From a virus, in IMG/VR virus record IMGVR_UViG_3300037847_002819, positions 1-64,000 of that record: a DNA stretch of 64,000 nt; one strand, written 5' to 3'. How positions within the stretch are numbered: position 1 is the stretch's first letter; each line of letters begins with the position of its first letter. Both the position numbers and the translations under genes were made by a program. Shown here one piece after another: positions 1 through 31,264 of this stretch. Below the pieces are notes generated by a model, which did no database searches, was not told the origin of the DNA, and was given only the letters and a program-made list of their open reading frames with translations.

Positions 1-248
1 AACTCAAAGTTATGGAATTCGTTTTCATAAATAATTGGTCTGTATGACCTCTTTACTTTATCATCAACAATACCTTCTATGTTTTTGATAATAGCACCGA
101 CTTGTGCTTGAGAAGGATATGTGGAAGAAGAAAATGCTGGAACTTGTAGCATATCAGAAACGGCATCCTTATCTGTATAAAATCCATTACCTGTTGAATA
201 GTCAACATTGATTGCGGTATAGTCACTAGGGGAGGATGCTACGGGCAT
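1..248 (-). CDS. Partial structural protein, possible head-tail connector
   Basis: Only the N-terminal 82 codons are in the window; the gene runs off the left edge. It starts MPVASSPSDYTAINVDYS and its ATG overlaps the TAA of the upstream gene (TAATG). A helical stretch, VGAIIKNIEGIVDDKVKRSYR, resembles the first helices of small head-tail adaptor proteins, which recognise the portal in HK97-type virions. Its position downstream of the capsid and decoration genes fits that role. The connector call is inference; that it is a real late gene is well supported by the operon. Confidence 0.55.
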   Translation of the reverse strand, partial: MPVASSPSDYTAINVDYSTGNGFYTDKDAVSDMLQVPAFSSSTYPSQAQVGAIIKNIEGIVDDKVKRSYRPIIYENEFHNFE

Positions 249-2071
249 TATATCACTAACTCCAATTCTTTTAATTTCTTATTAATTCTTTTAGCAAACA
301 AATTAATATCTTTTTTGACTTCATAATCCTTTTTACCGGAATAAGAAACTCTTGATTTTGGCTTTTTATCATCCGTTGCTTGCGGGGCTTTCCTTGTTCT
401 AGGTTTTGCCCTAAATGGTGCAACTTGCGAACCTCCGCCTGTTCCTTTAGGGACAACCGGAGGAACTAATTCTTCTTCTAACATTATGTAAAAACTATTA
501 ACATTGTAAGTAGTAACCATTGTCATTTTACCATCTTTCTTTTTTCGTTTATCTTCTTTAGTTACTCTCAGATATATTCTGTAATTATTTTTCAAATCAT
601 TCAATGCCCTTTTAACCATATTATTCTTTTTAACGAATGCCTTTGGGTTAGTAAACGCTTCTTTTTGTTCTGCGGCAGTTAAATTAGAAATAGGAGATTT
701 TATTCCTAGTTTTTCTTCAAACTCTTTATTCAACTCATTTCCTTTCTTTTGATATTCTTCTAACCAATTTTTCATTTTTGTCATGGCTTCGTTATCATAA
801 GCGTCTGTTGCTTCATCAAATATTTCTAAAAAGTATTCGGCTCTAGTAAGACCTGCATCTTTAGCGGCCTGTGATTCCTTTGTTGTTTTATACAGTTTTA
901 GGTATTCATCTTTGAATGTAAAATCATTATCTCTTCCTTTTCCTTTTATTAAATTAGTAGGAACAAAATTTAATTCTTCATCAGTTAATCTTTTACCTGC
1001 TTCAATTTTATTTCTGATAACATCGTATTTATCATCAAAGTCATTATATACATCTGTAAAGTCTTTAATTTCTTTTCTTAAACTAGCAGTTAAACTCATA
1101 TATTTTCTCGCTCTTTCTAACGATTCGTTTAAACTTTTTAATAATTTAGTTGAGTCCTCTAATTTTTTTTGCTGGCGTTCTTTATCTTCTTTTGAAGAAA
1201 CAGATTTTAAATCTCTAATTAACTCTTTAGTGTTATTAATTAATTCTTTAGTATTAGATACTTTATTTTCTAAAGACTCTTTCATCTCTTCTGCAAAATA
1301 AAGACTTCTAGTAAAAACATAAGGTAAGTCAAAACCTTGTTTTACTTCTCCTTTGGTATTTAATTTAACCCTGCTATAAAATTTATCATAAGATTGCATT
1401 AAATCCGAGGGAATTAACTTTCCTCTTTCTAACCCAAACTTCATAGATGTATCAATAGGTTTTAGTAAATTTATTTTACGACCTACCCGTTCAGCGTAAA
1501 TATAATCAAAGCCTAAACTATTAAGTTTTTCAGTTTTAGTTTTAGGTTTTCCTTTGTTTGGCAATTGTGACACTACATTTCTTTCATCGAATTCTAAAAC
1601 TTTAATTTCTTTTTTTCTTTCTGTTTTTTCTTTTATGCCATTTTTTTCTGCCTTTGAAAGAAAATTAAAATAATTATCAATATCTGCCCATCCCATTTCT
1701 ATTTCTTCTTCGAAATCAATGCGGCTAGTTTCACCTGTTATATCATCTAGGACTCTATCAGTTCCTAAATCCTGAATAGTGTAATTACCTACCTTATCTA
1801 AAAAATATATTTTGAAATCCATATCCAATTCTTTGATTTTGGTTTCTTTTATCTTTTTAATAGCGGCTTCGTTAATCGAATCAAATTCTTTTTTATCAAA
1901 ATTATCATTTATTTTAGGAATGCTTTCAATATAATCATCAATATCATTATAGTCCTTTTTCCTAGTTTCTAAATATTTACTACCGAAAATGAATTTCTTC
2001 ATTTCGTTTGTGGCGTATTTGGTAGTCCAATTGATAGCCCTACCGCCAGCACCACTGTAAATAATTTCCAT
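248..2071 (-). CDS. Large charged late protein of unknown function
   Basis: 607 residues, rich in Lys, Glu and Asn, with long predicted helices and a coiled coil around residues 265-325. The last 90 residues change to a Pro/Gly/basic linker (PPVVPKGTGGGSQ) followed by a short helical end. I recognise no enzymatic motif. It follows a 217-residue protein by 11 bases. The position between head and connector genes suggests a virion or assembly protein. It lacks the MSW-type N-terminal peptide carried by many late proteins here. Confidence 0.75.
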   Translation of the reverse strand: MEIIYSGAGGRAINWTTKYATNEMKKFIFGSKYLETRKKDYNDIDDYIESIPKINDNFDKKEFDSINEAAIKKIKETKIKELDMDFKIYFLDKVGNYTIQDLGTDRVLDDITGETSRIDFEEEIEMGWADIDNYFNFLSKAEKNGIKEKTERKKEIKVLEFDERNVVSQLPNKGKPKTKTEKLNSLGFDYIYAERVGRKINLLKPIDTSMKFGLERGKLIPSDLMQSYDKFYSRVKLNTKGEVKQGFDLPYVFTRSLYFAEEMKESLENKVSNTKELINNTKELIRDLKSVSSKEDKERQQKKLEDSTKLLKSLNESLERARKYMSLTASLRKEIKDFTDVYNDFDDKYDVIRNKIEAGKRLTDEELNFVPTNLIKGKGRDNDFTFKDEYLKLYKTTKESQAAKDAGLTRAEYFLEIFDEATDAYDNEAMTKMKNWLEEYQKKGNELNKEFEEKLGIKSPISNLTAAEQKEAFTNPKAFVKKNNMVKRALNDLKNNYRIYLRVTKEDKRKKKDGKMTMVTTYNVNSFYIMLEEELVPPVVPKGTGGGSQVAPFRAKPRTRKAPQATDDKKPKSRVSYSGKKDYEVKKDINLFAKRINKKLKELELVI

Positions 2072-2082
2072 TGTGAATCAAC

Positions 2083-2736
2083 TCACATTAGCCATTTAGC
2101 CCAAGCCGCACCTTTTTGTATTGCTGAACCTAATCCTAATCCCGAAGAAGGTGGTTCGTAACTCATTTGACCATTAGCATCAATCCAATATGGGCGACCA
2201 TATCCATCTGTTCCATTTGGAGGAATAGGATAGCCCGAACCGTTATTTACTGCACTATTCACTTGATTATACTGTTGCATATTACCTGTTACACCAGCAA
2301 TTGCCGCACCAGCAGAAACCTGTGTATTTGGTGTTGAGAAGCCTTGAGATTCTAGGTATTGTTGTTTTGCCATCTTTCTTTGATTGATAACTTCTGTATT
2401 GATTGCTGAATCTAATAGTCTTGTTAAATCTAAATCAATGTTTTCTTTTGTAATTCTTTCAAATTCTGCCAAAGCACCGGATTGTAATTTCATTGTCCCT
2501 GATGTTGAATCTTGAACAAATACTAATTGCGTTAACATTTGACTAACTGACCTTGCTACTACATCTTCCATTAACTGTTCTAATGCAGCAAAAAATTGCT
2601 GACCATGATATTGGAAAAACTCTTCAACATGATTTTCTTGTAATGAAAGCAAATTACTAACATTTTTGAATTGTTGTTCTGATTGTGCTTGAACCGCACC
2701 CATTACTGCTCCATTACTTGTTCCAAACATTCCCAT
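2083..2736 (-). CDS. Late protein, Gln-rich helical N-terminus, Gly/Pro C-terminus
   Basis: 217 residues. Residues 15-130 are predicted helical and Gln-rich, with amphipathic heptads. Residues 135-217 are low-complexity (Ser, Gly, Asn, Pro, Tyr) with the segment YPIPPNGTDGYGRPYW. This layout of an oligomerising helix plus a flexible aromatic tail suits a virion component, but I do not recognise the family. It lies two bases after the zinc-site protein upstream, so the two are translated together. Confidence 0.72.
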   Translation of the reverse strand: MGMFGTSNGAVMGAVQAQSEQQFKNVSNLLSLQENHVEEFFQYHGQQFFAALEQLMEDVVARSVSQMLTQLVFVQDSTSGTMKLQSGALAEFERITKENIDLDLTRLLDSAINTEVINQRKMAKQQYLESQGFSTPNTQVSAGAAIAGVTGNMQQYNQVNSAVNNGSGYPIPPNGTDGYGRPYWIDANGQMSYEPPSSGLGLGSAIQKGAAWAKWLM

Positions 2737-2738: not shown

Positions 2739-3419
2739 TTATTCCTCCTTATTGTTGCTACTTAACAGATAATTTAATCTTTCCGTTGATAATCCTATTT
2801 CAACAACCAAACGGACAATTTCCGCCATAGTCGTTTCACTATCCGCTAAGGTGGGCGGTTTAATAAGCCATCCGGTTGAAGTAAGACTAGCAACATCTTC
2901 TTTGCTTAGGGTTACAAGAGGAGTTTTCTTCATAAGTTGAGGAGTTTTTAATTTAGGAATAAACGCTTTGAAGTCTAAGCCGTGTTCATCAGCAAGGATT
3001 TGTTGTTGTAGCATTTCCATTTGCTTATGAATTGCTGCGTGTTTAGGACAATAAGTGCCTCTCATCGGTCTTCCTTTAGTGACTTTATCTAAAGGAATAG
3101 GGGGTCTTAGAAAATCTCCAGCCTCCCAAACATGATGTGTTCCACAAACAATACATACATCTTTGAAATTAAACTTATGACCGTATTTTAGTTTCAGAAA
3201 ACTTTTCTTTTCTGGTAATAGAATCTTTTTTATTTCTTTTAATTGTTTTTTAGGTTTAATAGCATCGTATTTGTATTCTGTTATATTTCCACCTGCTCTA
3301 AATTGTTGTAGTTTAGGTAAAAACTTATTCATAGAAAATGAATTTAATTGACTTGGGTTGCTTGAATTAGGAGTTATTGAAACATTAGTTCCTATTAAGT
3401 TCGGTTGTTGATATGCCAT
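2739..3419 (-). CDS. Late protein with a Cys/His zinc site
   Basis: 226 residues. A CIVCGTHHVWEAG stretch near residue 87 and a second set, YCPKHAAIHK, near residue 128 could together bind one zinc through Cys and His. The N-terminal 45 residues are Asn/Ser/Gln-rich and probably disordered. The C-terminal 60 residues are helical. It follows the small GTPase gene by nine bases and may work with it. Function unknown. Confidence 0.72.
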   Translation of the reverse strand: MAYQQPNLIGTNVSITPNSSNPSQLNSFSMNKFLPKLQQFRAGGNITEYKYDAIKPKKQLKEIKKILLPEKKSFLKLKYGHKFNFKDVCIVCGTHHVWEAGDFLRPPIPLDKVTKGRPMRGTYCPKHAAIHKQMEMLQQQILADEHGLDFKAFIPKLKTPQLMKKTPLVTLSKEDVASLTSTGWLIKPPTLADSETTMAEIVRLVVEIGLSTERLNYLLSSNNKEE

Positions 3420-3428: not shown

Positions 3429-4133
3429 TCAATAATCTTTTATCATTGTAGTGATTCCTTTATACACCATTTCGGGGTCTGATTTTGCTGATACTATGTA
3501 TTTGAATGTCGGTATTCCTTTATCATTTAGTTGCCTCATTCCGTATTTGAAAGGTTCAAAAATTTCATGTTTTTCAATAGACTTTTCTGATTTATGTTTT
3601 TCTCCCCATATATCATATTTATTAGCCCATATTCCTACTGCTAAAGGATAATCTTTTTCTTTTTTCTTTTTACCATTCGGCCATCTATCACTAATAATAA
3701 CATCAACTAAAAACTTCCACGCTACTTGGTGGTCTAAATTAACTCCGCTATCTAAGTGCCTATGGTCTATCATGAAAATAATGTATTTAGGTTTTCTCAT
3801 TCTCATATCTTTAGCCCATTCTTTCCAATATATCGCTTCTCCTCCTATATCAGAACTTCTTATAGTGTGCATATCCCCGTCTATCTTAATTGTTTTTCTT
3901 GTTGGTCTATGTAATCCAACAGTCCTTTCATTAATTTGCTGCACTTCTCCTCTTGTTCTTAATTGGTGACTTAATGTTGTTTTGCCTACCATTGTTGCTC
4001 CATAAACTCCGAAATTGATTGCGTGTATTTTTTTCCAAAAACCTATCATCGCTTCGCCGACAAGAATAGCGAAACCTGTCATCACTGACAAGATTAAACC
4101 TCCCAAGAATGCCAAAGGTTGTCTAATATCCAA
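3429..4133 (-). CDS. Membrane-anchored small GTPase (Ras/Arf/SR-beta-like)
   Basis: 234 residues. One hydrophobic helix (about 8-33) is followed by a GTPase core. Visible motifs are the P-loop GATMVGKT (45-52), DIGGE for switch II (95-99), ANKYD for the guanine-specific N/TKxD motif (170-174) and SAK (215-217). The order and spacing are those of Ras-superfamily proteins. The N-terminal anchor recalls SR-beta and other membrane-tethered members. It overlaps the preceding membrane-protein gene by 40 bases. Binding and hydrolysis of GTP at a membrane is expected from the motifs; its role in the virus is unknown. Confidence 0.8.
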   Translation of the reverse strand: MDIRQPLAFLGGLILSVMTGFAILVGEAMIGFWKKIHAINFGVYGATMVGKTTLSHQLRTRGEVQQINERTVGLHRPTRKTIKIDGDMHTIRSSDIGGEAIYWKEWAKDMRMRKPKYIIFMIDHRHLDSGVNLDHQVAWKFLVDVIISDRWPNGKKKKEKDYPLAVGIWANKYDIWGEKHKSEKSIEKHEIFEPFKYGMRQLNDKGIPTFKYIVSAKSDPEMVYKGITTMIKDY

Positions 4134-4309
4134 CCAACAACATTTATGTCAAAGACACCTAATATATTTCCTAGAAAGAAAAAGGATAAAGAGGCACAAG
4201 TGACCCAAAACCACATTCTCATTTTCATAAAAAACATATCAGCAGAATGCGCCCTGCTTTGATTATAAACATAGTCGGTTTCTGTAAAACCCATTATGTC
4301 ATTAAACAT
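4094..4309 (-). CDS. Small membrane protein
   Basis: 71 residues. A hydrophobic stretch WFWVTCASLSFFFLGNILGVF (about 33-53) is a clear membrane helix and a weaker amphipathic segment (VVGWILDNLWHSW) follows. The gene lies between another membrane protein and the membrane-anchored GTPase and overlaps the latter, so the three are probably made together and may form a complex in the host membrane. Confidence 0.72.
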   Translation of the reverse strand: MFNDIMGFTETDYVYNQSRAHSADMFFMKMRMWFWVTCASLSFFFLGNILGVFDINVVGWILDNLWHSWEV

Positions 4310-4318
4310 TTAACCACC

Positions 4319-4708
4319 TCATTGTAGTTTAGCCAAAAAGTCATTTGAAATTGTGTTTTCGGTTTCATACATTGTGGTGCTAGGTGCAATAACTGATGTA
4401 TTGTATTGCTTCATAGTTTCTTGAAGTTTTTGTCTTTGTTGCTCATCCCTCGCCCTGCGTTCCCAATAAGCATTGATTCTTCTATCTAACAATCTTAATT
4501 CAATCTTATCGTTAAGTGATAAATCGAAGATTGCTTTCAAACACATGATACCTCCAACGGTAATTAATCCGAACAAGGTAGCATGGGCTAATGTAGTGTA
4601 AGGGAAATTAATCCCGTAGTTAGCATAAAAATATACATTAGCACCGCTAACAGTGCCAACGAATAGTATAGTCATAATTAGTCTAGTATCTTGATTTAGT
4701 GCCGCCAT
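4319..4708 (-). CDS. Two-helix membrane protein with a coiled-coil tail
   Basis: 129 residues. Two membrane helices (about 10-29 and 39-62) are followed by an Arg/Gln/Glu-rich coiled coil (70-105) and a polar tail. It is the first of three membrane proteins in a row that end with the small GTPase. The topology suggests a hairpin in the membrane with a cytoplasmic coiled coil. No family recognised; a role in the virion, lysis or membrane remodelling is possible. Confidence 0.72.
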   Translation of the reverse strand: MAALNQDTRLIMTILFVGTVSGANVYFYANYGINFPYTTLAHATLFGLITVGGIMCLKAIFDLSLNDKIELRLLDRRINAYWERRARDEQQRQKLQETMKQYNTSVIAPSTTMYETENTISNDFLAKLQ

Positions 4709-6084: not shown

Positions 6085-7419
6085 TCACTGTATGTTAGTA
6101 ATTTTTCCTTGACCCTTGAAGAAAGAACAACCGACTTCACCGATTGTTCTATACAAAGCCCTGTTACCTAATGTTCCTACACCGAATGGGTTTCCATTAG
6201 CGATACCATCTTCAAAGTATTGAGTTGGCTTCATAACTGATAGCCATAGATGGTCTGTATCAAGGAATAATAGGTCAGATAGTTGAGTTGAAGCCAATCC
6301 TGTGCTAGTCATGTCTTTTACAGGAATTAGTGGAATATCGTAGTATGTTGCTACTCTAAATCCTACTTCTTGACCCTTTGTTCCACGAACACCGTTCACT
6401 GTTGGAACAATTTCTTTTCTATCCATAAATCTTTCTTGACTTTGCAATAGGTCTGCAATTGCTTGAATAGTGTCATATCCGGTTAGAATAACCTTTGGTG
6501 AACCACCAGCAAGTCTTAGGTTGCGAACCATGTTATTTAGCAAAGTTAGGCTTAGTGGCCTAACATCTGTTGCTGCATAAGAATTACCTTCATCAACTTC
6601 GGCATCAAGGAATGAAGCCGCATCACGGTTTGTTCCGTAAATGTGACTTACATTTGTTGCAGTAGCACTATCAGTCATTAGAGAAGATTGTGCGTCTAGT
6701 TTATCCAATTCATCCTTTGAAGTAATAACCTTCAACAATGAAGTATAATTGTTACCAATGTTAGGCAATAGTGCTGATTCACCATAAAACTCTAGTGGCA
6801 TAACAAGCATCTTGTTTTGGACTTCAGCGTGGTGCTTACCCATATCTTCACGCATTTGCGCTCTAATATCGCCAATTCCATCATCAATTTGTGCCATTTC
6901 CATAGCCAACTCGCTGAAATCAAATTGGTGTGCAACAACTTTAGGACTCATGTTCAATTGAGCATAAGTTGGTGCAATTGGCCCTAATCCATCTTGTGCA
7001 GTTGAAAGTCCAGCATTTTCTGGAACACCACCAATAGAATCTGCTCTAGGTGTATCTGAACCCAATTCTCCCAATGTTAGGGAAACATCTGCTTTATCAA
7101 CAGTAAATAGATTACCGCTACCACCAGCAGGTCTGCTCTTTAATACTCTCCAACCGCTTGAAGTGTATGGCCTCTTTGAAATCATAGACAATGCGTTAAC
7201 TTCACGGTTTAGCATAGACCAAACCTTTTGTCCATAAACGACATTGTATAGTGCTGATACATCAGAAACGGCTGAACCGCTAAATGACGGAGAACCGTCA
7301 TGTCCTGTGTGTATTCCACCAACCATACCTGCTTGCTTTAGCAAGGCATTTCCGGCTGGAAGATTCATTCCGTATGTTTGTGCTTCTAAATCTGCTATTG
7401 TGTTAATATATCCTGTCAT
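6085..7419 (-). CDS. Major capsid protein (HK97-type, inferred)
   Basis: 444 residues from the chosen start. The gene directly follows the protease/scaffold fusion, as in most HK97-type head modules. Its codon use and composition (less Lys, more Gly/Ala/Ser/Leu) differ from its neighbours, as expected of an abundant structural protein. I see no diagnostic motif; the call rests on position, length and a helical segment with Met/Asp/Glu (residues 170-205) that could be the spine helix. I chose the ATG at 7419, 5-6 bases after GAGGTGATT, over a GTG at 7428 that lies inside that ribosome site. Confidence 0.82.
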   Translation of the reverse strand: MTGYINTIADLEAQTYGMNLPAGNALLKQAGMVGGIHTGHDGSPSFSGSAVSDVSALYNVVYGQKVWSMLNREVNALSMISKRPYTSSGWRVLKSRPAGGSGNLFTVDKADVSLTLGELGSDTPRADSIGGVPENAGLSTAQDGLGPIAPTYAQLNMSPKVVAHQFDFSELAMEMAQIDDGIGDIRAQMREDMGKHHAEVQNKMLVMPLEFYGESALLPNIGNNYTSLLKVITSKDELDKLDAQSSLMTDSATATNVSHIYGTNRDAASFLDAEVDEGNSYAATDVRPLSLTLLNNMVRNLRLAGGSPKVILTGYDTIQAIADLLQSQERFMDRKEIVPTVNGVRGTKGQEVGFRVATYYDIPLIPVKDMTSTGLASTQLSDLLFLDTDHLWLSVMKPTQYFEDGIANGNPFGVGTLGNRALYRTIGEVGCSFFKGQGKITNIQ

Positions 7420-7429
7420 CTTAATCACC

Positions 7430-8708: not shown

Positions 8709-11234
8709 TCATTTAGGTGGAAGTGGCAATTTTTTATACTTATCTTCGTAAATATTCCATAGTCCAGCATCAGTGTCTTTATCTGCTGGCTTCTGTTTAT
8801 ACCCTGTCCAAGCCAGCCACATTTCCTTTCCATCCACTTCTATTACTCTAAAGTGCAGTTTAGTTTCAAACTTATTACCTCTCAAGAAATATTCGTGATA
8901 GCCTTCTTTCTGAACACCGAGTCCTATTTCTCCAGAATCTATAATTTTCTTCTTGGAAATGTTAGTTGCTATTTGGGCAGGGTATTTATTCGCCTTTCCA
9001 AACAATCTGAATATATCATCGTCTTTTTCTAAGTCTATTAACCAATTAAGTGTTTCATCTTCTAACTTAATTACTAAGTTTAAGTTTTCATCATCCCTTA
9101 GATATAATTTGAAATTACCCTCTTGAAGTTTTTTTGGAGTTTTATATTTTTTAATTTCCTCTTCATCTTGCATAATCTTATCGGGGTCTGCAATTAATTT
9201 CTTTTCTTTCTTATCAAAAGAAATACCATCTCTTTCATCCATCCAATTAGGTAGTCTATTCATTTTACTTTCTAGAATATCTTCATATATTTTAGAATGA
9301 TTTTTTACTAAGAAATCATGTAATTCTTTAGGAGTTTTTGCACCCCTTTCCTTTAGATACTGAAAGGCCGCAACAGTTAATCTAGACTGTTTTGTTTTCA
9401 TTATTGCTTCTGCTTGACTTTTCCATTCATCTAAATTTGCTAAAGCATTTTTAGACATTAAGTTACTTTCATCGAACCCATAAATAGTAAATCCATCCAT
9501 GTCACCTTTAATAATAACATTAGTTTCACCGTGAATATAATCAGTAACACTTACTCCCTTTTCTAATGCTTTTACATCATAATTCAAAGATTTCTTTGTA
9601 TCTTTAGATAACAACTCAAGTGTGACTAACTTATCAGGATATTCCACTTCTGGAACTTCTATTACTTTAGCAGAATAAATTGAATAAGTGTCTCCTTTCT
9701 TTTTTACCTCATCAACTTTTACACGAACAATATCTCCAATATCAACAGATATTTTAGTATTCAATGCTTTTCCTACATTCATATATTTAAGACCATTAAT
9801 TTCTTGTCCTTCATCAGTCGGCCCAGCCCCTAATGTATATGAATACAGTTTAGATTTAGTTTTCTTTTTATCTAACACAATCAAATCTAAATCAACAAAC
9901 TTCTTCCATTTAATCCATTTAGGATTTTTCTTAGTCCCTATGTAATATGTGGAAGTTGAATCTTTAATGACTACACCTTCGGCAGTAGGCATATCCATTA
10001 TTTCTTTTGAATACTGTTCAACTTCTTTAATCGAATCCGCTAATCGAGTATCTTTCTTAGAAGGGAAGTTTAGATATTCACTCGAATGAACAGAATAATT
10101 ATTGAACATTGTGTTCAATCTATCACTCAAAGGTTCATCTGCAATATTTTTGTCATTGTGTCGCATAATGTCAAACATATGCGCTTTTAGTTTAGCATCA
10201 GGATATTTACCCTTAAACACATGAGCAATAGTATCTGCTCTATGTAGTGCATCCTTTCCATCAAATAATATTAATTCACCATCTAGAATACAATCCCCGA
10301 AGTGTTTCTTCTTCATTTCTTCAACGATTTCTTTACACTTATCAGTAATATCTTTTTCATTATAGGAATAAACTTTAATCTTGTTGTCTATTTTATGAAC
10401 CTGTATTCTCATACCGTCATATTTTTCTTGAACAATGTATTCACCGCTAAATCCTTTTAACTCTTCCATGTCTTCAATGTCAAATATTCTATACATAGGT
10501 TTGTTAGGAGTAATAAAATCTGTCTTACCCTTTTCTGTTTCTGATTTTTCAATCATTTTTTTAGGTGTATCAGTTTCCATGTCAATATCTTCTAACTCTT
10601 CCCAATCTTCTTCATTGTGTTTAGAAAAGAATAATAGTTCTAACATAGCCATAGCAGACTTAACTTTCTTTTCCACCTTCTTTGAGTCTTTTCCATCCCC
10701 ATAATGCTCAATAATATAGAGGGGAATATCATCCACTTCTAGGTCAAGTCCCATAAGACCATCCGTAATGGTGTCAGGTTTCATGTCTTTAACGCTGTAA
10801 ATGGATGGATTAAGTGCTTTATTGTCATTTCTCATAGCATAATGCAAGAATTTAACCATTGTTTCCGGTGATTCTAATAACGCTTCAAGAACATTATCTT
10901 TGAAGTGTTTGGCAAAAGGGTCAGAAACCTCATCAGAAGCATATCGAAGTTTTTTCACTGCTTCGTATATCTTTTCAGCAATAGTAGTAGTTACATCGGA
11001 AGCATCTTCATTATTCAAATCCTTATCATCAATGTAGCGTTTCAATTCTTCTCCAAACTTCCCCGAATCATCATATTCCTCTTTGATGTATTCAATAGCA
11101 CTTCTCCATTTTGAACCATACTCTTTCGGGTCGGTTCTTGCAGAAAGATAGGCAACCCTAACTCTTTCAAACAATTGAAGTATTTGATTAGAAGCGTTAC
11201 CCTTCTTCTCAAATAGAAGGCCGGATTTAGGCAT
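8709..11234 (-). CDS. ATP-dependent DNA ligase fusion protein in the late operon
   Basis: 841 residues, well above the size of a minimal ligase. Residues 1-235 are helical and unrecognised. Residues 240-545 are an ATP-dependent ligase core: EKYDGMR with adenylated Lys271, LDGE (317-320), EGVVIK (419-424), WIKWKK (440-445), then an OB-fold region. Residues about 615-841 end in a beta-rich part (LNLVIKLEDETLNWLIDL ... EYFLRGNKFETKLHFRVI) that recalls the 3'-phosphoesterase domain of LigD; this match is tentative and the catalytic residues are not obvious. It lies between scaffold and portal genes, so it may be packaged. A second ligase lies at 59895-61424. Confidence 0.85.
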   Translation of the reverse strand: MPKSGLLFEKKGNASNQILQLFERVRVAYLSARTDPKEYGSKWRSAIEYIKEEYDDSGKFGEELKRYIDDKDLNNEDASDVTTTIAEKIYEAVKKLRYASDEVSDPFAKHFKDNVLEALLESPETMVKFLHYAMRNDNKALNPSIYSVKDMKPDTITDGLMGLDLEVDDIPLYIIEHYGDGKDSKKVEKKVKSAMAMLELLFFSKHNEEDWEELEDIDMETDTPKKMIEKSETEKGKTDFITPNKPMYRIFDIEDMEELKGFSGEYIVQEKYDGMRIQVHKIDNKIKVYSYNEKDITDKCKEIVEEMKKKHFGDCILDGELILFDGKDALHRADTIAHVFKGKYPDAKLKAHMFDIMRHNDKNIADEPLSDRLNTMFNNYSVHSSEYLNFPSKKDTRLADSIKEVEQYSKEIMDMPTAEGVVIKDSTSTYYIGTKKNPKWIKWKKFVDLDLIVLDKKKTKSKLYSYTLGAGPTDEGQEINGLKYMNVGKALNTKISVDIGDIVRVKVDEVKKKGDTYSIYSAKVIEVPEVEYPDKLVTLELLSKDTKKSLNYDVKALEKGVSVTDYIHGETNVIIKGDMDGFTIYGFDESNLMSKNALANLDEWKSQAEAIMKTKQSRLTVAAFQYLKERGAKTPKELHDFLVKNHSKIYEDILESKMNRLPNWMDERDGISFDKKEKKLIADPDKIMQDEEEIKKYKTPKKLQEGNFKLYLRDDENLNLVIKLEDETLNWLIDLEKDDDIFRLFGKANKYPAQIATNISKKKIIDSGEIGLGVQKEGYHEYFLRGNKFETKLHFRVIEVDGKEMWLAWTGYKQKPADKDTDAGLWNIYEDKYKKLPLPPK

Positions 11235-18638: not shown

Positions 18639-19036
18639 TGTTTTTCCCTCTTCATTTGATTCTTTTTGGATTTCTCATCCTTTGTAATCGGGCCACCTTT
18701 AGCCCATGTATAACAAGTCCTATCTTCATGGCATTTGAAATCGTGCATCCAACAATAACCTAATCCGCCTTTTACATCTTCAATTGGCATACAATCTTTC
18801 ATTCTTGGACTAATATCAAAAGCAATACAATTAGAACACTTTGATTTTTTGGCTACTTTAACTGATGTATTCCAATGCTCCGCAACATCTTCCCAATATT
18901 TTTCATCATCTAAATTAAGTGGCCCATATCGAATATCTTCGTCTTTAATGGCAGCATTTCTATTCTTAGTGTTTAATTTAAGATTCTTAGTTGCCGCAGG
19001 GCAAGTTAATTGTTTGAGGATAATTTCCCAACTCAT
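18635..19036 (-). CDS. MSW-tagged Cys-rich protein
   Basis: 133 residues. Tag MSWEIILKQ, then a Cys-rich domain: KCSNCIAFDISPRMKDCM, GYCWMHDFKCHEDRTC and TWAKGGPI. Seven Cys and a His in this order, ending W-x-x-GGP, form a pattern found in small phage proteins; iron-sulfur or zinc binding are both possible. The metal is not decidable here. It overlaps adjacent genes by 2-4 bases. Confidence 0.75.
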   Translation of the reverse strand: MSWEIILKQLTCPAATKNLKLNTKNRNAAIKDEDIRYGPLNLDDEKYWEDVAEHWNTSVKVAKKSKCSNCIAFDISPRMKDCMPIEDVKGGLGYCWMHDFKCHEDRTCYTWAKGGPITKDEKSKKNQMKREKQ

Positions 19037-19353
19037 ATAATTTCCCTCTTTTGTCCTTTTCCTTTGCCTTTTACTTCATCAGCAGGTAATGTTTTTATTT
19101 TGCTTTTTTGTTCTTCTATTTCTTTTTTTATTTCTATAAGAACATCTTGCAATTCCTTAACCATTTTCATTTGTTTATCAAAACCGTATATATCTCTCGT
19201 TGTGCTTGTTGAAGATGCAATCAACTCAGAATGAACATCTTCATACCTTTTTTCTAACTCGCTCAATAGCCTGTTAATGGGCTTATTGTGCCTTTCAATA
19301 AATTTCCTTCGGCGGTAACTTTTTCCTCTTTTAATTACATTTTCCCAACTCAT
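19033..19353 (-). CDS. MSW-tagged coiled-coil protein
   Basis: 106 residues. Tag MSWENVIKRGK followed by a basic stretch (YRRRKFIERHNK), then a long coiled coil (about 30-95). Basic ends and a rod-like middle suggest binding to DNA or to other head proteins. Translation is coupled to both neighbours by short overlaps. Confidence 0.72.
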   Translation of the reverse strand: MSWENVIKRGKSYRRRKFIERHNKPINRLLSELEKRYEDVHSELIASSTSTTRDIYGFDKQMKMVKELQDVLIEIKKEIEEQKSKIKTLPADEVKGKGKGQKREII

Positions 19354-19745
19354 GCAGTAAATCCTCTCCCTCGACTTGGTTTGTGTGTGTAAATATCTCC
19401 GTCACTGTGTCGGTATATTACTTTCTTTCTTTGCATAGCACCCAATATTCTTAGTAATTCTTTTCTAGGTGCAATTCCTCTTAGGTTTTTCATTCCTAAT
19501 GCTCCGCCTTCTTTTTTAATTTCTGCAAGTATTTCTCTTTCTATTTGAGAATCAGATTTCATTTTCTTAGCGACCTTTTTATCTCTAAGTAATTTGAAAT
19601 CCTCTCCGCTAATTTCACCATCATTATTAGCGTCAATTTCTTTTTGCCTACCTGTTAATTTTTCAAAGGTAGGTTTATCTTCATCATCTAATTTTTCTGA
19701 ACCGCAGTGTGCTTTTTCTGCTTTTAGAATATCTTTCCAACTCAT
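19350..19745 (-). CDS. MSW-tagged protein with an EF-hand
   Basis: 131 residues. Tag MSWKDILKAEK; an EF-hand calcium loop DANNDGEISGEDF (about 38-50) preceded by LTGRQKEI; then a winged-helix-like region (IEREILAEIKKEGGALGMKN ... VIYRHSDGDIYTH). Asp, Asn, Asp, Glu and Glu sit at the expected loop positions. An EF-hand preceded by LTxxQKxID recurs in marine phage structural proteins. The tag, the calcium site and a possible DNA-binding domain are joined in one small protein. Confidence 0.78.
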   Translation of the reverse strand: MSWKDILKAEKAHCGSEKLDDEDKPTFEKLTGRQKEIDANNDGEISGEDFKLLRDKKVAKKMKSDSQIEREILAEIKKEGGALGMKNLRGIAPRKELLRILGAMQRKKVIYRHSDGDIYTHKPSRGRGFTA

Positions 19746-20083
19746 GCTCTCATCCTCTTTGTTTTTTCTTTACTAGATTCTTTTCTTGCTAAAGCGACTT
19801 TGTGTGCAGCATTTAATCTCTTTTTTGTTTCTGGATTTTTTGCTCTTTTAGCCGCTACTCTTGCTCTTTGTTCAACTAAATTAATTATTTGTGATTGTCT
19901 TTTATGTGGCTTGTTCTTGAATGCCGAACTATTGAATGTTTCTCTCACATCGCTTGCGGTCTTAAACTTAACGGGAACAGTGTCTTTCGGGTTTTCATCA
20001 GTGTATAATCTTCTATCAGAACCTTTTGGTTTTTTACCCGTTCCTTTCTTGGGGTCTTTTTTTAGAACTTTTCGCCAACCCAC
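19742..20083 (-). CDS. Tagged basic DUF protein
   Basis: 113 residues, very basic. Tag variant MGWRKVLKKD. The body DENPKDTVPVKFKTASDVRE ... HKRQSQIINLVEQRARVAA matches a pattern I know from pelagic phages (DxxxTVxIKFATxxDAxxT ... RKIQILTVxEQRA), function unknown. The C-terminus is a Lys/Arg/Ala helix. Probably a DNA-associated internal protein. Confidence 0.73.
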   Translation of the reverse strand: MGWRKVLKKDPKKGTGKKPKGSDRRLYTDENPKDTVPVKFKTASDVRETFNSSAFKNKPHKRQSQIINLVEQRARVAAKRAKNPETKKRLNAAHKVALARKESSKEKTKRMRA

Positions 20084-20473
20084 TTAATCACCTAAAAAAT
20101 CACCTAGATTCATTCCTCTTTCTCTTTTTCTGTTACTCTTAGGACTGTATCTTTTTGAGCCTTTCCAATCTTGTTCAATCGCTTCGTTCATATATTGAGC
20201 AAGAAGACCTTCATGAAACTCTATCCATTTTGGAGTAGGTTTGAAGTTATCATCATTCTGTATTCTTTTGATAGTTCTTTCTTCGAACCTTTTTAGTTTA
20301 TCACTTGGATAATTGTCTGTAAAATACTTCCAACTAATTTTACCATCCTTAACCATATTGCCCCTAATACTACCATAAGGAAGTTTATCATAGTCCACTT
20401 TCATATGAGGAACAGTCCAATTAGAAGGATTTGTCCAATCTGTCTCTTCTTTTAGTATATCTTTCCATTTCAT
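20084..20473 (-). CDS. Tagged late protein of unknown function
   Basis: 129 residues. Tag variant MKWKDILKEETDW, then a Trp/Tyr/Pro-rich globular part (PSNWTVPHMKVDYDKLPYGS) and a helical region ending in a basic stretch (KRYSPKSNRKRERG). No family recognised. Its start is four bases from the upstream stop. Confidence 0.72.
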   Translation of the reverse strand: MKWKDILKEETDWTNPSNWTVPHMKVDYDKLPYGSIRGNMVKDGKISWKYFTDNYPSDKLKRFEERTIKRIQNDDNFKPTPKWIEFHEGLLAQYMNEAIEQDWKGSKRYSPKSNRKRERGMNLGDFLGD

Positions 20474-20477
20474 ATTA

Positions 20478-20945
20478 TCACTTCTGACTAAACTTCTTTC
20501 CTGTTGGTATGTGTTGCTTACCTCTTTTAGTTCCTTCTCTTTTCTTTTTATCTTGGTAATTTAATGTTGATTGTGAAGTGCTTTGAAACTTTTTCTTAGG
20601 CATAAATCTCCCTGTTGATTTAGGAGGGGGAGTTTCGCCTCTTGCTCTCGCTTTGTGTTGTTTTTGACTTCCCCATTCTTCATCAGTCCATTCGTCTAAA
20701 TCCTCTTGGACTTTTGCTTTGGCTTTTGAAATATCATTTCTAATTTCCTCCAAACTTAATGGTTTAATCATAGCACCTTTTTGCTTTCTTCCTGTTCTAT
20801 CTCCCAAAATAGGATGATATTTTATAAAGCGATATGCCCTTCCTTCTGATATAAATAAATATTTTTTCCCGTTTGATAGAGTCCTTACTCTAGGTTTTTC
20901 TTCCCTTTTCAATATACTACGCCAATTAATCCCGATAGCCACCAC
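20478..20945 (-). CDS. Basic late protein with an internal NWRSILK tag
   Basis: 155 residues as drawn (MVAIGINWRSILKREEK); the tag-like INWRSILK starts at residue 6, so a shorter product from an alternative start is possible. The segment WTDEEWGSQKQHKARARGE followed by PKSTGRFMPKKK resembles the EWGTKSGKxSxETGxRYLPKxA module of other phages. Very basic C-terminus. The gene overlaps the DUF5872-like gene by 20 bases. Confidence 0.7.
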   Translation of the reverse strand: MVAIGINWRSILKREEKPRVRTLSNGKKYLFISEGRAYRFIKYHPILGDRTGRKQKGAMIKPLSLEEIRNDISKAKAKVQEDLDEWTDEEWGSQKQHKARARGETPPPKSTGRFMPKKKFQSTSQSTLNYQDKKKREGTKRGKQHIPTGKKFSQK

Positions 20946-21132
20946 CCGCCCGTTTATACGCTTGTGCTAACATTTGTGCTTTTCTTGCAGACCATTGACC
21001 AGCCGCACCACCCTTAGTTCCCGCTTTTATTCGTTGAAATATTCTCTTACGCATAGCAGGTTTAGTATAATTACCTGCTTGATTAACAGTTGACTTTTTC
21101 TTTTTCTTTTTCAAAACTTCTTCCCAAGTCAT
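20926..21132 (-). CDS. Tagged DUF5872-like small basic protein
   Basis: 68 residues. Tag MTWEEVLKKKKKKS joined directly to KPAMRKRIFQRIKAG and QWSARKAQMLAQAYKRAGGGY, the DUF5872 pattern (KPxLRxRIxxRIKAGxKGGxxGQWSARKAQLLAxxYKxxGGGY) seen in phages and large viruses. Very basic; DNA binding likely. This is the shortest clear fusion of the tag to a known module and shows that the tag is separable from its cargo. Confidence 0.82.
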   Translation of the reverse strand: MTWEEVLKKKKKKSTVNQAGNYTKPAMRKRIFQRIKAGTKGGAAGQWSARKAQMLAQAYKRAGGGYRD

Positions 21133-21134
21133 AA

Positions 21135-22784
21135 TTATTCCTCCTCATATTCTGGAAAATCTTCCGGTTGCATTACTTTACCATTCTCATCAACATAGTG
21201 CCACATAAACCCTTTAGCAGTGTAACCTGTTTCATCTTCTAAAAAGTTATTTATTGCATCATCTATGTATTCTTGTGTCATAGCCCAATCATCGGGAAAG
21301 CCCAAATCAGCAATAGGAACGGCCATGTATGTTGGTAAATCGCTTTCATCTAATCTAACAGATTCACCTTCGATATATTCTGCATCATCCCAATCAACTT
21401 CTGTAATTACAAATGTCTTTACTTGTTGTTTAGCAATAATTCCTCCGATGCCTTCTAACTCATCCATAAGGCTCATTTTACAATTGCCTTGTAATTTAGA
21501 AATATCATCAACATATATTCCCTCTTTGGAAAAGTCAAACCCAACATGGTCTTTGTGGTTCTCCCACTTCATCAGTTTGAATATTTCTTCACACCTGCCC
21601 TTATACCAATCAGCCTTCTTGTATGACTTCTTCATGCGGATTAATTCTAGCAACAATTCAGCATTACCCTTCTTCATTCTAAAGTGTGGCAAGCACTTTG
21701 TCAATAGGTTATACACATCATCTTGCGAATAAAAGTTAAGGCGATTTACAGGTCTTGTATCTTGTGGGGATTTTTGGTCTAAGTGTAATTTACCAAAACC
21801 AATAGACTTGTGCATTTCATTCATAAACACCTTGCCTCTCTCTCCTGTTGCCACTAACCCTACTCTTGGATTATGGTTTCTATCCATAGTAATGTAGCCG
21901 TCTGAATCAATAAATGCGGCAGTATAAGCCCATACATTTTTCTTTAATTCACTAGGTAATTTGTAATATGACCCATCATAATGACCTACTTCTAATTTTT
22001 TAATCATCTTAGAAATAGTGTTTGATGAATTCATTTTGTGTAATTGATTCGGCATTTTATCATGTATGCTTAATAGCCCAATTCCCGGATTTTCACATAT
22101 TGCTTTCATAATAAAGTCTAATGTTCTTTCTTTCTTTGATTTAACTAAAGATTGGTCACTAACCTTTTTTAATTCTTCTCTAAACTCTTTCTTTGCTAAT
22201 CTAGATTCTTTCTCTAATTTAGCATATTCAGGACTAAAAGCCATTCCTTCCTTTTTCAAATCAATTTCCCATAATTTACAAAGAGAGTCAACAACAACTC
22301 TTCTCTCTTTAACTTCTGAAATTTTATTTAATTTAGATAAATCTTTTTCGTTGAATCTCATCTTTAATAGCGGAACTTTGTAGGGTTTAATCCAATAAAT
22401 AGAATCAATGCATTTATTGATGTGGTCTGCATAACCATCAATAACGGTATCAATTGCTTCAGACATTCTAATTCTAGAATCGCCTTTTAATTTCCTTCTT
22501 GCTTTACGCATCTTTCTAACTAAATCTGGAATGTTTTGTCCATCAACAACATATTCAGACGGGAAGGTGGATAACCTTTTTCTAGCATCAGTGGCATTTA
22601 TGTTAAGATTCTTTGAAAGAGTAGTTACCGCTTCATAATCTGACATGACATAATCAGAAACGCCTGTCAATTTAATATTCAAATCACTTTCAACTTGAGT
22701 GACTTCTTCTTCCTTTTCACGCTCTAATTCAGCAAGACGCTTCATTCTTTCTGCGGCTTCATCGTATTCATCTGCTGATACCAT
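21135..22784 (-). CDS. LAGLIDADG-like protein between TerL and the small-gene block
   Basis: 549 residues. The N-terminal 220 residues are charged and helical. A winged-helix-like part (about 225-285) is followed by AYTAAFIDSDGYITM, a LAGLIDADG variant, and a fold that continues to about 420 (YSQDDVYNLLTKCLPHFRMKKGNAELLLELI). An acidic C-terminus follows. LAGLIDADG proteins are homing endonucleases or DNA-binding derivatives. The second motif copy is not obvious, so a regulatory or packaging role is as likely as homing. It lies 10 bases downstream of TerL. Confidence 0.7.
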   Translation of the reverse strand: MVSADEYDEAAERMKRLAELEREKEEEVTQVESDLNIKLTGVSDYVMSDYEAVTTLSKNLNINATDARKRLSTFPSEYVVDGQNIPDLVRKMRKARRKLKGDSRIRMSEAIDTVIDGYADHINKCIDSIYWIKPYKVPLLKMRFNEKDLSKLNKISEVKERRVVVDSLCKLWEIDLKKEGMAFSPEYAKLEKESRLAKKEFREELKKVSDQSLVKSKKERTLDFIMKAICENPGIGLLSIHDKMPNQLHKMNSSNTISKMIKKLEVGHYDGSYYKLPSELKKNVWAYTAAFIDSDGYITMDRNHNPRVGLVATGERGKVFMNEMHKSIGFGKLHLDQKSPQDTRPVNRLNFYSQDDVYNLLTKCLPHFRMKKGNAELLLELIRMKKSYKKADWYKGRCEEIFKLMKWENHKDHVGFDFSKEGIYVDDISKLQGNCKMSLMDELEGIGGIIAKQQVKTFVITEVDWDDAEYIEGESVRLDESDLPTYMAVPIADLGFPDDWAMTQEYIDDAINNFLEDETGYTAKGFMWHYVDENGKVMQPEDFPEYEEE

Positions 22785-22794
22785 TTAATTCACC

Positions 22795-24228
22795 TCAGAA
22801 GTTCATTCCCAAAAAGCCGTTAGTCTTCGCATACTTGTTAGTTTTAACCGGCTCAAATAAGCCCAAGTCATCCAGCAGTATGAATGTTTCACTCATAGTA
22901 TGTGTTGCGGCATTTGCTAATGCTAGACTCATCACCATATCGTCATGCGCTCCAATACCCTCAAACTTTCCTTTATCAGTAATAGCAAACATTGACAATT
23001 CTTCTATCAGTGTCATAGTAACTCTTCGGCTTTCTTCATTACCATAAGGTAGTCGAATCTTCTCGTTTTCAAAATTCATTTGAAGGCTAAGAATAATTTC
23101 TTCCTTTCGTTTTCTAGTGGTATTGAAATCATGCACATTCAAATCAGACACATTCCTTAACTCCTGTGTAAATGATTTAGCAAAGGTGTTTGTTTCAAAG
23201 AGGACTACTTCGGGATGGAACATTTTTCCTATTAGACGAACCTTTTCTATGTTCTCTCTAAACTCAACATTCTTTGAACGGTCAACAAATACTATTGTCT
23301 TATTGTCATGTTCATCAACTTCTAATACAGTAATTACATTGTAGTCTCCATCTGTTGAAATAGCAGGGTCAACTCCAACATAATACTTGAATCCCTCTCG
23401 TCTTTGAGGCTTCAAAACATAATCTTTGTTCTTGGCTTTCTCTAAATAATCCGGATTGAATAGAGAAGTTCCTGTTGAAATAGGCACACACATATATTCT
23501 CTTGTGAACATAAGCGAACCTACTTCCGCCTTTCTCGCCATTAACGCATCATAATTCCATCTCTCCGGCCATAACGGTTCATTCAAAGAATTAAGACATG
23601 GGTATGTTCTAACAGTGTAAGCATCGTTTTCTGATAACTGTTGGTAAATATCTGTATAACTAAATGGAGTTCCAATTACTCTTAGAGAAGCGGTGTGGTG
23701 AAGTGTCGGAATCATATCACCATAAAACCAATCTGTAACCTTCTGAATACCTGTCATACTAAACTCTTTCAAAGGGTCGTCAATTACTATTTCTTGAGGG
23801 TGCAATCCACGAATCTGTGAACCTACTGAACGCTCTAAGATTTGATTACCATTAGTTAGTGTAATGTTTCCAATAGCCCATCCCCTAGCAGGTTTGTATT
23901 TCTTTAACATGGGATGGTTAAACATCTTGTCAATATCTCTCATGTGAACCAATGTCTGTTTTTGGTTAGATGAAATGTAAAGCATTTGATATGGTGGCTC
24001 TTCGAAAATTAATTTCCAAACAACCCAACTGTGCATAAATACAGATTTTCCGTGGTCACGACTACAAATAATAACTGTTCTTTGAGTTTCATTCATTAGG
24101 TCATGCCATTCACTAATATAAGAAGGAAAGTCAAAACCTAATACATTCTGAAAGAAGTATGGAAAAGAGTTTTTGGATAACTCCATATCCATCTGATGTT
24201 CAAAATTAAAAGGTTCTAATTCTGTCAT
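22795..24228 (-). CDS. terL: Terminase large subunit
   Basis: 477 residues, typical length. ATPase: CSRDHGKS (55-62) as Walker A, EIVIDD (146-151) as Walker B plus catalytic acid, and the coupling motif IGTPFS near 185. Nuclease, RNase H-like: VGVDP (Asp287), VLFETN (Glu345) and AHDDMVMSLALA (Asp429/430). It cuts concatemeric DNA and pumps it through the portal. It directly follows, with a four-base overlap, the GNAT-like gene. Family assignment is firm. Confidence 0.95.
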   Translation of the reverse strand: MTELEPFNFEHQMDMELSKNSFPYFFQNVLGFDFPSYISEWHDLMNETQRTVIICSRDHGKSVFMHSWVVWKLIFEEPPYQMLYISSNQKQTLVHMRDIDKMFNHPMLKKYKPARGWAIGNITLTNGNQILERSVGSQIRGLHPQEIVIDDPLKEFSMTGIQKVTDWFYGDMIPTLHHTASLRVIGTPFSYTDIYQQLSENDAYTVRTYPCLNSLNEPLWPERWNYDALMARKAEVGSLMFTREYMCVPISTGTSLFNPDYLEKAKNKDYVLKPQRREGFKYYVGVDPAISTDGDYNVITVLEVDEHDNKTIVFVDRSKNVEFRENIEKVRLIGKMFHPEVVLFETNTFAKSFTQELRNVSDLNVHDFNTTRKRKEEIILSLQMNFENEKIRLPYGNEESRRVTMTLIEELSMFAITDKGKFEGIGAHDDMVMSLALANAATHTMSETFILLDDLGLFEPVKTNKYAKTNGFLGMNF

Positions 24229-24998
24229 TCAATACTGCCTCCTAAACTCTCAACCTTTTGTTTTAATTTCTGAGCCTTTTTATGTAATTGGTATCTAAGT
24301 AATTGTTGATAATAAGCAGCAAGAGCCTTTTGTTTAGCGTGAGTGAATGGATGAGAAACAATTTCTTTGAACATTCGGTCATACTCATTTAATATTTCCA
24401 TTTGCATATTTCTTAAAGTGCTTTCATTTCTTGCTTGTGTTACAGGAGGATATTTGCTTAAAGGATTCCAAACTTTCAATAAAACAAACCATGTGTCTGA
24501 ATTTTTCAAATATATTTTTCTGACTATTGTTCCGCCTCTATCTTTAGCGGCTTCTAAAGCAGATTTTACTTCTGTTGGCACATCTTCATTACCTTGAATT
24601 AATCCATTCTTCACTTCTATTGGTTTGAATTTTAATTTATTCAATAGTTTTACTCCTTGCTTACTTGCGCCATTTGCTAAAATCGGCCTATCACCATGTT
24701 TGTCCACAACATATTTTGTAACGAAACTACCTGCACCTTTTTTGTAACTCACTGCTCCTAAAGATAAATACACTCCCTCGAATCTTCCTATCCCATATGA
24801 ACCAACAGGTTTTCCTTCAAAATATGCAATCCACCATTCACCATCCACTTCTTCAAATATAGTGTTCTTTAGTTGTTTGTATCTTTCTGCTCTTGTTTGC
24901 CAATCAATTCCAGCATCAGCAAATATTTTCTTTGTCTCGCTTTCACTAAAACTTCTATCGCTAATAGTGTATTTAAAGCGTTTAGTCAAATAAATCAC
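24225..24998 (-). CDS. GNAT-like N-terminal domain with a helical tail
   Basis: 257 residues. Residues 20-130 resemble a GNAT acetyltransferase fold: WWIAYFEGKPVGSYGIGRF (strand pair), a central strand, KKGAGSFVTKYVV in place of the acetyl-CoA loop, and GVKLLNKLKFKPIE at the end. The canonical Q/RxxGxG/A is weak, so catalysis is uncertain. The last 90 residues are helical with basic patches. It is the gene directly before TerL, where small packaging proteins often lie; an alternative to TerS is possible. Confidence 0.68.
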   Translation of the reverse strand: MIYLTKRFKYTISDRSFSESETKKIFADAGIDWQTRAERYKQLKNTIFEEVDGEWWIAYFEGKPVGSYGIGRFEGVYLSLGAVSYKKGAGSFVTKYVVDKHGDRPILANGASKQGVKLLNKLKFKPIEVKNGLIQGNEDVPTEVKSALEAAKDRGGTIVRKIYLKNSDTWFVLLKVWNPLSKYPPVTQARNESTLRNMQMEILNEYDRMFKEIVSHPFTHAKQKALAAYYQQLLRYQLHKKAQKLKQKVESLGGSIE

Positions 24999-29733: not shown

Positions 29734-29743
29734 TTAGGCCACC

Positions 29744-29962
29744 TCATTGTAATTCCTTTTTTAGTTTTTTAAGACCTTCTGAAAAAGTATCTAGGACTCT
29801 ATTCAGATTTTCTTTTTTATCAGCGTATTGGGGTTGTTTTCTCATTTCCCTTACCATTTCTATTATTCCTTTATATTCTTCAATAAGGTTAGGAAGATTT
29901 TCCTTATGTTTTCTTCTCGCTCTAACTCTTTTCATTCTAGCAATATTCGGGTGTTCTCTCAT
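29744..29962 (-). CDS. Small basic helical protein
   Basis: 72 residues, one or two helices, rich in Arg/Lys at the N-terminus (MREHPNIARMKRVRARRKHK). No tag. It overlaps the stop of the upstream tagged gene by four bases. The basic start could bind nucleic acid. Function unknown. Confidence 0.68.
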   Translation of the reverse strand: MREHPNIARMKRVRARRKHKENLPNLIEEYKGIIEMVREMRKQPQYADKKENLNRVLDTFSEGLKKLKKELQ

Positions 29963-30165: not shown

Positions 30166-30181
30166 TGTAATCCCTCTTGTA

Positions 30182-31263: not shown

Positions 31264-31264
31264 T

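What the first reader, a model, noticed from the sequence alone, without database searches (positions are those of the whole stretch)
3429..4708. Small GTPase with a membrane anchor next to two membrane proteins
A Ras/Arf/SR-beta-like GTPase (GATMVGKT, DIGGE, NKYD, SAK) with an N-terminal membrane helix overlaps a 71-residue membrane protein and follows another with a coiled-coil tail. Small GTPases in archaeal viruses are, to my knowledge, hardly described. A GTP-driven membrane step during assembly, entry or exit is possible. Its location in the head operon makes a purely metabolic role unlikely.
Basis: partly seen in the sequence, partly recalled or inferred. Interest (0 to 1): 0.78.

Follow-up and report, generated by a model that had tools for sequence, protein, structure and literature searches.

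The report
Magrovirus small GTPase in membrane module
Tailed viruses of abundant ocean archaea carry, next to their capsid genes, a Ras-like molecular switch that always travels with the same two membrane proteins and two soluble partners, suggesting that these viruses control some step at the host cell membrane, perhaps their release, with GTP.

Summary
The GTPase is real. The window lies in a 95.9-kb magrovirus record (tailed virus of Poseidoniales). The gene encodes a 220-residue Ras-superfamily protein; its conserved start is TTG at 4091, not 4133, so it does not overlap the 71-residue gene. In 190 non-redundant full-length viral relatives (down to 57% identity) the G1-G5 motifs are essentially invariant; G3 is DxGGE (146) or DxGGQ (45). 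GTPase dN/dS (median 0.037) is lower than that of the major capsid protein (0.10).

The main new result is a fixed five-gene module: TM129 - TM71 - GTPase - zinc-finger protein (o226) - o217, in 284 of 284 loci with enough flank. Presence fits a single gain or loss on a capsid-protein tree. Sister magroviruses lack all five genes and carry a different set of small membrane proteins in their late operon. In the window's record the module holds nearly all membrane proteins outside the tape measure.

It is not a known virus family. Subfamily stays open: Ras, SR-beta, Roc and Arf profiles score alike, and MglA is excluded by G3. My best reading is a GTP-controlled late membrane step, most likely egress, working like archaeal ArvA or eukaryotic Arf. 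The GTPase module is well supported; the egress role is inference (about 0.4).

The parts
3429..4091 (-). small GTPase gene (220 aa, TTG start)
   Evidence: conserved start in 80 loci; SD-like sequence upstream in 159 of 169 distinct relatives; family alignment A3; Ras-fold model
4026..4091 (-). N-terminal membrane-seeking helix, residues 1-22 (MSVMTGFAILVGEAMIGFWKKI), invariant Glu13
3978..4001 (-). G1 / P-loop GATMVGKT (residues 31-38)
   Evidence: G31, G36, K37, T38 invariant in 191 sequences
3915..3926 (-). switch I RTVG with the G2 Thr57
   Evidence: Thr57 invariant
3837..3851 (-). G3 / switch II DIGGE (residues 81-85); Glu in place of Ras Gln61, Gln in part of the second clade
   Evidence: D81 and G84 invariant; E 146, Q 45
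3612..3623 (-). G4 NKYD (residues 157-160), guanine specificity
   Evidence: N, K, D invariant
3483..3491 (-). G5 SAK (residues 201-203)
   Evidence: invariant
4094..4309 (-). TM71: 71-aa membrane protein with invariant RAHSAD motif before the hydrophobic part
   Evidence: in 284/284 loci
4319..4708 (-). TM129: two hydrophobic helices followed by a charged helical tail
   Evidence: in 284/284 loci
2739..3419 (-). o226: 226-aa protein with invariant CxxC ... CxxH (C89, C92, C124, H127), probable zinc finger
   Evidence: alignment A4; in 284/284 loci
2083..2736 (-). o217: 217-aa protein with conserved LQENHVEEFFQYHG and a Trp-rich C-terminus (AWAKWLM)
   Evidence: alignment A5; in 284/284 loci
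6085..7428 (-). major capsid protein (context; not part of the module)
   Evidence: SU10_MCP 5.5e-6, phrog_24667 3.9e-23

Best explanation
The finding is the centre of a five-gene late membrane module of magroviruses. Shown: a Ras-superfamily GTPase with intact nucleotide-binding motifs, a short hydrophobic N-terminal helix, and obligatory linkage to TM129, TM71, o226 and o217. Inferred: the GTPase docks on the host cytoplasmic membrane through its N-terminal helix when GTP-bound, as Arf and ArvA are thought to do. It recruits or gates the small membrane proteins, and o226 and/or o217 regulate it, for example as GAP, GEF or effector. Late in infection this switch times or drives a membrane step, most likely release of virions from the host cell by permeabilising or remodelling the membrane.
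For: All five genes in the same order and strand in 284/284 loci with flanks. G motifs essentially invariant in 190 non-redundant relatives, with lower dN/dS for the GTPase (median 0.037) than for the MCP (0.10). Pairwise distances correlate better within the module (GTPase-TM71 r 0.87, -TM129 0.80, -o226 0.82, -o217 0.81) than with the MCP (0.73). In the window's 95.9-kb record the only likely small membrane proteins are this module plus one 53-aa ORF. Cassette-less sister magroviruses carry another trio of small membrane proteins in the late operon; its 2-TM member is in 3/3 of them and 0/9 cassette-bearing records. No GTPase was found in 12 records that carry that protein. One of the trio has a weak XhlA/hemolysin and holin resemblance (E 0.03-0.09). 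A working precedent exists: the archaeal GTPase ArvA, Arf-like with an amphipathic N-terminal helix and an operon neighbour with a Zn-ribbon, drives membrane budding (PMC10927574).
Against: No experiment and no expression data. The replacement argument rests on one evolutionary change, so it is one observation, and the alternative trio sits at another place in the operon. The holin resemblance is weak, and TM129 is not detectably homologous to the sister 2-TM protein. No detectable homology of o226 or o217 to any Pfam family, including the ArvB/ArvC domains (DUF2073, DUF2072). Genes between the capsid and head-tail adaptor genes usually serve head assembly.
Confidence: 0.4

Rival explanations
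1. Assembly at the membrane: the module anchors prohead initiation or a head-completion step to the cytoplasmic membrane. The GTPase licenses release of the finished head, and o226/o217 bridge it to capsid or head-tail joining proteins.
For: The module lies between the small genes after the MCP (possible decoration proteins) and a large coiled-coil protein followed by the head-tail adaptor. It co-evolves with the MCP (r 0.73). o226 and o217 are soluble and highly conserved.
Against: Sister magroviruses and druskaviruses build related heads from the same MCP without any of the module genes searched for. None of the partners matches a known head or scaffold family.
Confidence: 0.25
2. Entry: TM129, TM71 and perhaps the GTPase travel in the virion and act on the membrane of the next host during genome delivery.
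For: Location in the structural operon. Small membrane proteins can be virion parts in other viruses (general knowledge).
Against: The tape measure protein already has several hydrophobic segments, the usual device for crossing the membrane. The module proteins lack the N-terminal M-x-W-x-x-I-L-K tag shared by many other late proteins, which might mark packaged cargo.
Confidence: 0.15
3. Host manipulation: the GTPase mimics a host small GTPase or blocks host membrane traffic, vesicle shedding or superinfection.
For: Small GTPases drive vesicle formation in euryarchaea (PMC10927574). Giant-virus Rab homologues are proposed to act on membranes (PMC4569851).
Against: Such genes are usually early, patchy and fast-evolving; this one is in the late operon, universal in its clade and under very strong purifying selection. 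No close cellular relative was found.
Confidence: 0.12
4. Not a GTPase but another P-loop NTPase, such as a nucleotide kinase, by chance resembling Ras.
For: Single-sequence database scores are weak (Roc 0.004); weak kinase matches in PHROGs and NCBIfam.
Against: All five G motifs in order, invariant in 190 relatives; TIGR00231 small_GTP in 29/29 members, best 1.8e-7; Foldseek Ras hits with probability 1.00, E 3.7e-7.
Confidence: 0.02

Closest known systems
ArvA (OapA) archaeal vesiculating GTPase with ArvB and ArvC (PMC10927574)
   Same: Archaeal small GTPase; Arf-like features; N-terminal amphipathic helix; fixed operon partners, one with a zinc-binding domain; annotated by the same general profile (PF01926)
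   Different: Cellular, not viral; partners ArvB (DUF2073) and ArvC (DUF2072) not detected here; no TM129 or TM71; sequence membership could not be tested
Arf/Arl/Sar1 family (PF00025)
   Same: N-terminal helix directly before beta-1; T-x-G in switch I; DxGGQ in part of the second clade
   Different: Profile match only in 11/29 members, best 2.6e-4, no better than Ras or SRPRB; Glu in place of the catalytic Gln in most members; long basic insertion before G4
SR-beta (SRPRB, PF09439)
   Same: Membrane-tethered small GTPase; profile match in 25/29 members, best 1e-4
   Different: N-terminal helix too short and too polar in the second clade for a sure membrane span; no SR-alpha/FtsY partner gene seen
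MglA and Rup prokaryotic small GTPases (PMC4316618)
   Same: Single-domain Ras-like proteins in prokaryotes; Rup group 1 also lacks the G3 Gln and has a coiled-coil and a membrane neighbour
   Different: MglA lacks the canonical G3 pattern and is coupled to MglB; the viral proteins keep D-x-G-G and no roadblock (MglB) match was seen beside them
Rab/Ras homologues of giant viruses (e.g. mimivirus Rab, PMC4569851)
   Same: Virus-encoded small GTPase proposed to act on membranes
Phage holin / XhlA-type lysis cassettes
   Same: Two small late membrane proteins, one with two hydrophobic helices and a charged tail
   Different: No holin family match for TM129 or TM71; no endolysin recognised beside them; holin modules have no GTPase

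Membership tests
Ras superfamily (TRAFAC small GTPases) | G1-G5 motifs in order | tested here: met
   essentially invariant in 190 relatives plus the window sequence
Ras superfamily (TRAFAC small GTPases) | Ras fold and strand order | tested here: met
   AF2 secondary structure in Ras order; Foldseek KRAS E 3.7e-7, prob 1.00, but model pLDDT only 64.7 and TM 0.45-0.60
Ras superfamily (TRAFAC small GTPases) | GTP binding and hydrolysis | not testable with these tools
   needs biochemistry
Arf/Sar family | curated Pfam Arf score | tested here: not met
   own record 0 matches; 11/29 members match at best 2.6e-4, not better than other families
Arf/Sar family | N-terminal amphipathic helix with nucleotide-dependent membrane insertion | tested here: inconclusive
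   short hydrophobic helix present with invariant Glu13; membrane switching not testable
SR-beta | N-terminal transmembrane helix and SRPRB profile | tested here: inconclusive
   profile 25/29 at best 1e-4, about equal to Ras 5e-5 and Roc 1.5e-4; helix borderline
MglA | non-canonical G3 and a neighbouring MglB (roadblock) gene | tested here: not met
   D81 and G84 invariant; o226/o217 give no roadblock match
ArvA | sequence clustering with ArvA homologues | not testable with these tools
ArvA | ArvB (DUF2073) and ArvC (DUF2072) next door | tested here: not met
   no such Pfam match for o226 or o217 members; o226 does have an unrelated CxxC/CxxH zinc motif
holin cassette | membership of TM129/TM71 in a holin family | tested here: not met
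   no holin PHROG or Pfam hit

The most novel reading that the evidence does not exclude
A tailed virus that releases its virions through, or remodels, the membrane of its archaeal host with its own GTP-driven switch: a five-gene, ArvA/Arf-like machine that replaces a holin-type module.
Probability: 0.3. Interest if true: 0.9.

Novelty: new variant of a known kind. Interest (0 to 1): 0.7.

Why it matters
Magroviruses are widespread viruses of marine archaea and none has been cultured; how they leave their host is unknown. A strictly conserved GTPase module, under stronger purifying selection than the capsid protein, gives a first concrete candidate for their membrane biology. It would also be, to my knowledge, the first small GTPase family fixed in a lineage of tailed viruses, and would bear on how membrane-remodelling GTPases spread between viruses, archaea and eukaryotes. 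The module can be tested by expression in a model archaeon.

Tried and rejected
Single-sequence searches: PDB none, PHROGs none, GenBank phages none; that collection seems to hold no close magrovirus, since MCP hits are only 20-26% identical. Genome scan: one hit, a magrovirus contig inside a Maricaulis MAG, taken as contamination because it also carries the MCP and the module. First AF2 model (22 similar sequences) was poor, pLDDT 61.6 with Foldseek rmsd above 12; the second with wider diversity was better but still modest. Homology of TM129 to the sister 2-TM protein or to the druskavirus TM protein at the corresponding place: rejected. Homology of o607 to the roughly 1000-aa protein at the same place in sister viruses: only a 35-residue match at E 0.003 for one pair, not reproduced with a second sequence or a profile, so left open. 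ArvB/ArvC homology of o226/o217: no match. A tree against SR-beta, MglA and ArvA was not built because no reference sequences could be fetched by tools. Glu at the Gln61 position: two open-access papers disagree on Ras Q61E (raised intrinsic activity, PMC2987813; reduced rate, PMC6813200), so no claim on rate is made.

Full report
What the window is. The window is bases 1-64000 of a 95,889-base IMG/VR virus record. It has an SU10-type HK97 major capsid protein (PF17236 5.5e-6; phrog_24667 3.9e-23) whose only relatives in the GenBank phage collection are haloarchaeal druskaviruses and a few methanogen-associated viruses at 20-26% identity. The rightward half reads like a replication and repair module with ATP-dependent ligase, TFB, a GroEL-type chaperonin and a clamp loader (my reading, not searched). 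This gene content and the two oppositely transcribed halves match the published description of magroviruses, tailed viruses of Poseidoniales (PMC10768690, PMC12999244). The head-tail adaptor gene is cut by the record ends (hits at 94926-95888 and 3-278, both minus), so the record is probably a nearly whole, circularly permuted genome.

The GTPase gene. In 80 relatives the conserved start is the codon five before 'GF' in MSxMTGF. In the window that is TTG at 4091, two bases after the TM71 stop. An SD-like sequence precedes the start in 159 of 169 distinct relatives. The protein is thus 220 aa. All five G motifs are present, and in 190 non-redundant full-length relatives, down to 57% identity, the residues that define them are invariant or nearly so. 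G3 is DxGGE in 146 sequences and DxGGQ in 45. The Gln is the standard catalytic residue, and the Glu variant is the rule in the window's clade. dN/dS over close pairs has a median of 0.037 against 0.10 for the MCP, which marks a functional protein under strong constraint rather than a decaying copy.

Family. Curated Pfam cut-offs are not reached by the window protein (Roc 17.9 bits against a cut-off of 27), but the family as a whole is clearly Ras-like. TIGR00231 small_GTP matches 29 of 29 members (best 1.8e-7). MMR_HSR1 matches 28, SRPRB 25, Roc 24, Ras 14 and Arf 11 of 29, all with best E near 1e-4. The AlphaFold2 model from 29 diverse members has Ras-type strand order (pLDDT 64.7) and retrieves Ras structures with probability 1.00 and E 3.7e-7. 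The model is of modest confidence, so this supports the fold and not a subfamily. MglA is excluded by the canonical G3. No PHROG fits. The predicted viral structures (BFVD) held no match at E <= 0.001, though only the poorer first model was searched there.

The N-terminal helix. Residues 1-22 are predicted helical. The hydrophobic stretch is 10-15 residues, with an invariant Glu13 (191/191). In the second clade residues 16-17 are typically N and K, and the 19-residue hydropathy is 1.35-1.49. That is below a usual transmembrane threshold, so an interfacial or amphipathic anchor, as in Arf and ArvA, is at least as likely as an SR-beta-like membrane span.

The module. In 284 of 284 loci that hold the GTPase with enough flank (some loci share contigs), TM129, TM71, GTPase, o226 and o217 follow each other in this order on one strand. 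In 35 and 18 distinct viruses respectively, extra sequence, often an extra gene, is inserted after or before the GTPase, yet the five remain. TM129 has two hydrophobic helices and a charged helical tail. TM71 has an invariant RAHSAD motif. o226 has invariant C89, C92, C124 and H127, a likely zinc site. o217 ends in a conserved Trp-rich AWAKWL segment. None of the four matches a known family convincingly. Pairwise distances of the GTPase correlate more with its module partners (0.80-0.87) than with the MCP (0.73).

Origin. A search seeded with the HVTV-1 capsid protein sampled more distant relatives. A clade of magroviruses (L238, L256, L257, L259, L269, L270) has the MCP and the small genes after it, but no TM129, TM71, GTPase, o226 or o217. 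There the small genes are followed directly by a roughly 1000-aa protein and the head-tail adaptor. Whole-record searches of three such records (94, 87 and 61 kb) found no GTPase, o226, o217 or TM129, as in druskavirus records. On a capsid-protein tree, module presence needs one change (module clade support 89/91; one change in 90% of bootstrap trees). Gain once, with vertical inheritance since, is the simplest account; a single loss in the sister clade plus absence in the outgroup is the alternative.

What replaces it. In the window's record the only plausible small membrane protein outside the module is one 53-aa ORF at the end of the replication module; the tape measure also has hydrophobic segments. 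The cassette-less records carry a different trio in the late operon: a coil with C-terminal TM, a 2-TM protein with a charged tail, and a helix with C-terminal TM. The 2-TM protein is in all three cassette-less records tested and in none of nine cassette-bearing ones. A separate scan found 50 loci with it, none next to a module gene, and 12 of their records of 61-96 kb hold no GTPase. One trio member has a weak XhlA/holin resemblance. This looks like one late membrane system replaced by another, but it is a single evolutionary event and the two sit at different places in the operon.

How it most likely works. Shown: an intact small GTPase, obligate partners, a membrane-seeking N-terminus, and position in the structural operon. 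Inferred: GTP loading exposes the N-terminal helix and docks the GTPase on the cytoplasmic membrane, where TM129 and TM71 are its partners; o226 and o217 regulate or read the switch. The outcome is a late membrane step, most likely egress. The best working analogue is ArvA, the euryarchaeal small GTPase that drives vesicle budding with operon partners, one of them a zinc-ribbon protein (PMC10927574). It works like ArvA in this proposal; that it is an ArvA could not be tested, and its partners are not detectably ArvB or ArvC. Assembly at the membrane, a virion role in entry, and host manipulation remain as rivals.

Novelty. Virus-encoded small GTPases are known from giant viruses of eukaryotes (PMC4569851). 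The open-access magrovirus papers I searched do not mention a GTPase; two key papers (Philosof 2017, Prabhu 2025) were not held, so an annotation line there cannot be excluded. I rate this a new variant of a known kind: a new small-GTPase family, in a new and strictly conserved viral module.

Noticed in passing
window 19036-36102 (minus strand), at least 19 ORFs; also L364 319-14571 in a sister magrovirus: Many otherwise unrelated late proteins share one N-terminal tag, M-[ST]-W-[KE]-x-[IV]-[IL]-K (for example MSWKDILK). Genes inserted around the GTPase in relatives carry MWFNILK/MWKNILK starts. It could be a shared targeting or packaging signal, comparable to the T4 capsid-targeting sequence.
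   Followed up: partly
L364 11194-11439, 11441-11803, 12205-12411 (record G001): Magroviruses without the GTPase module carry a different trio of small membrane proteins in the late operon; the 2-TM member was absent from all nine module-bearing records tested.
   Followed up: yes
L081 (NZMJ01000024.1, Maricaulis MAG): A contig of a Maricaulis metagenome-assembled genome is a magrovirus fragment with MCP and the GTPase module; probably binning contamination.
   Followed up: partly
window 8709-11234 (minus) and 59895-61424 (plus): Two ORFs with ATP-dependent DNA ligase-like motifs (KYDGMR, KYDGNR), one an 841-aa protein inside the head operon next to the prohead protease, the other in the replication module. 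Read from the sequence, not searched.
   Followed up: no
record ends: window 3-278 and record 94926-95888: The head-tail adaptor gene is split between the two ends of the record, so the genome is probably circularly permuted and the record nearly whole.
   Followed up: partly
record 77350-77511 (plus; beyond the window): A 53-aa one-TM ORF ends the replication module; the only other small membrane protein candidate of the virus.
   Followed up: no
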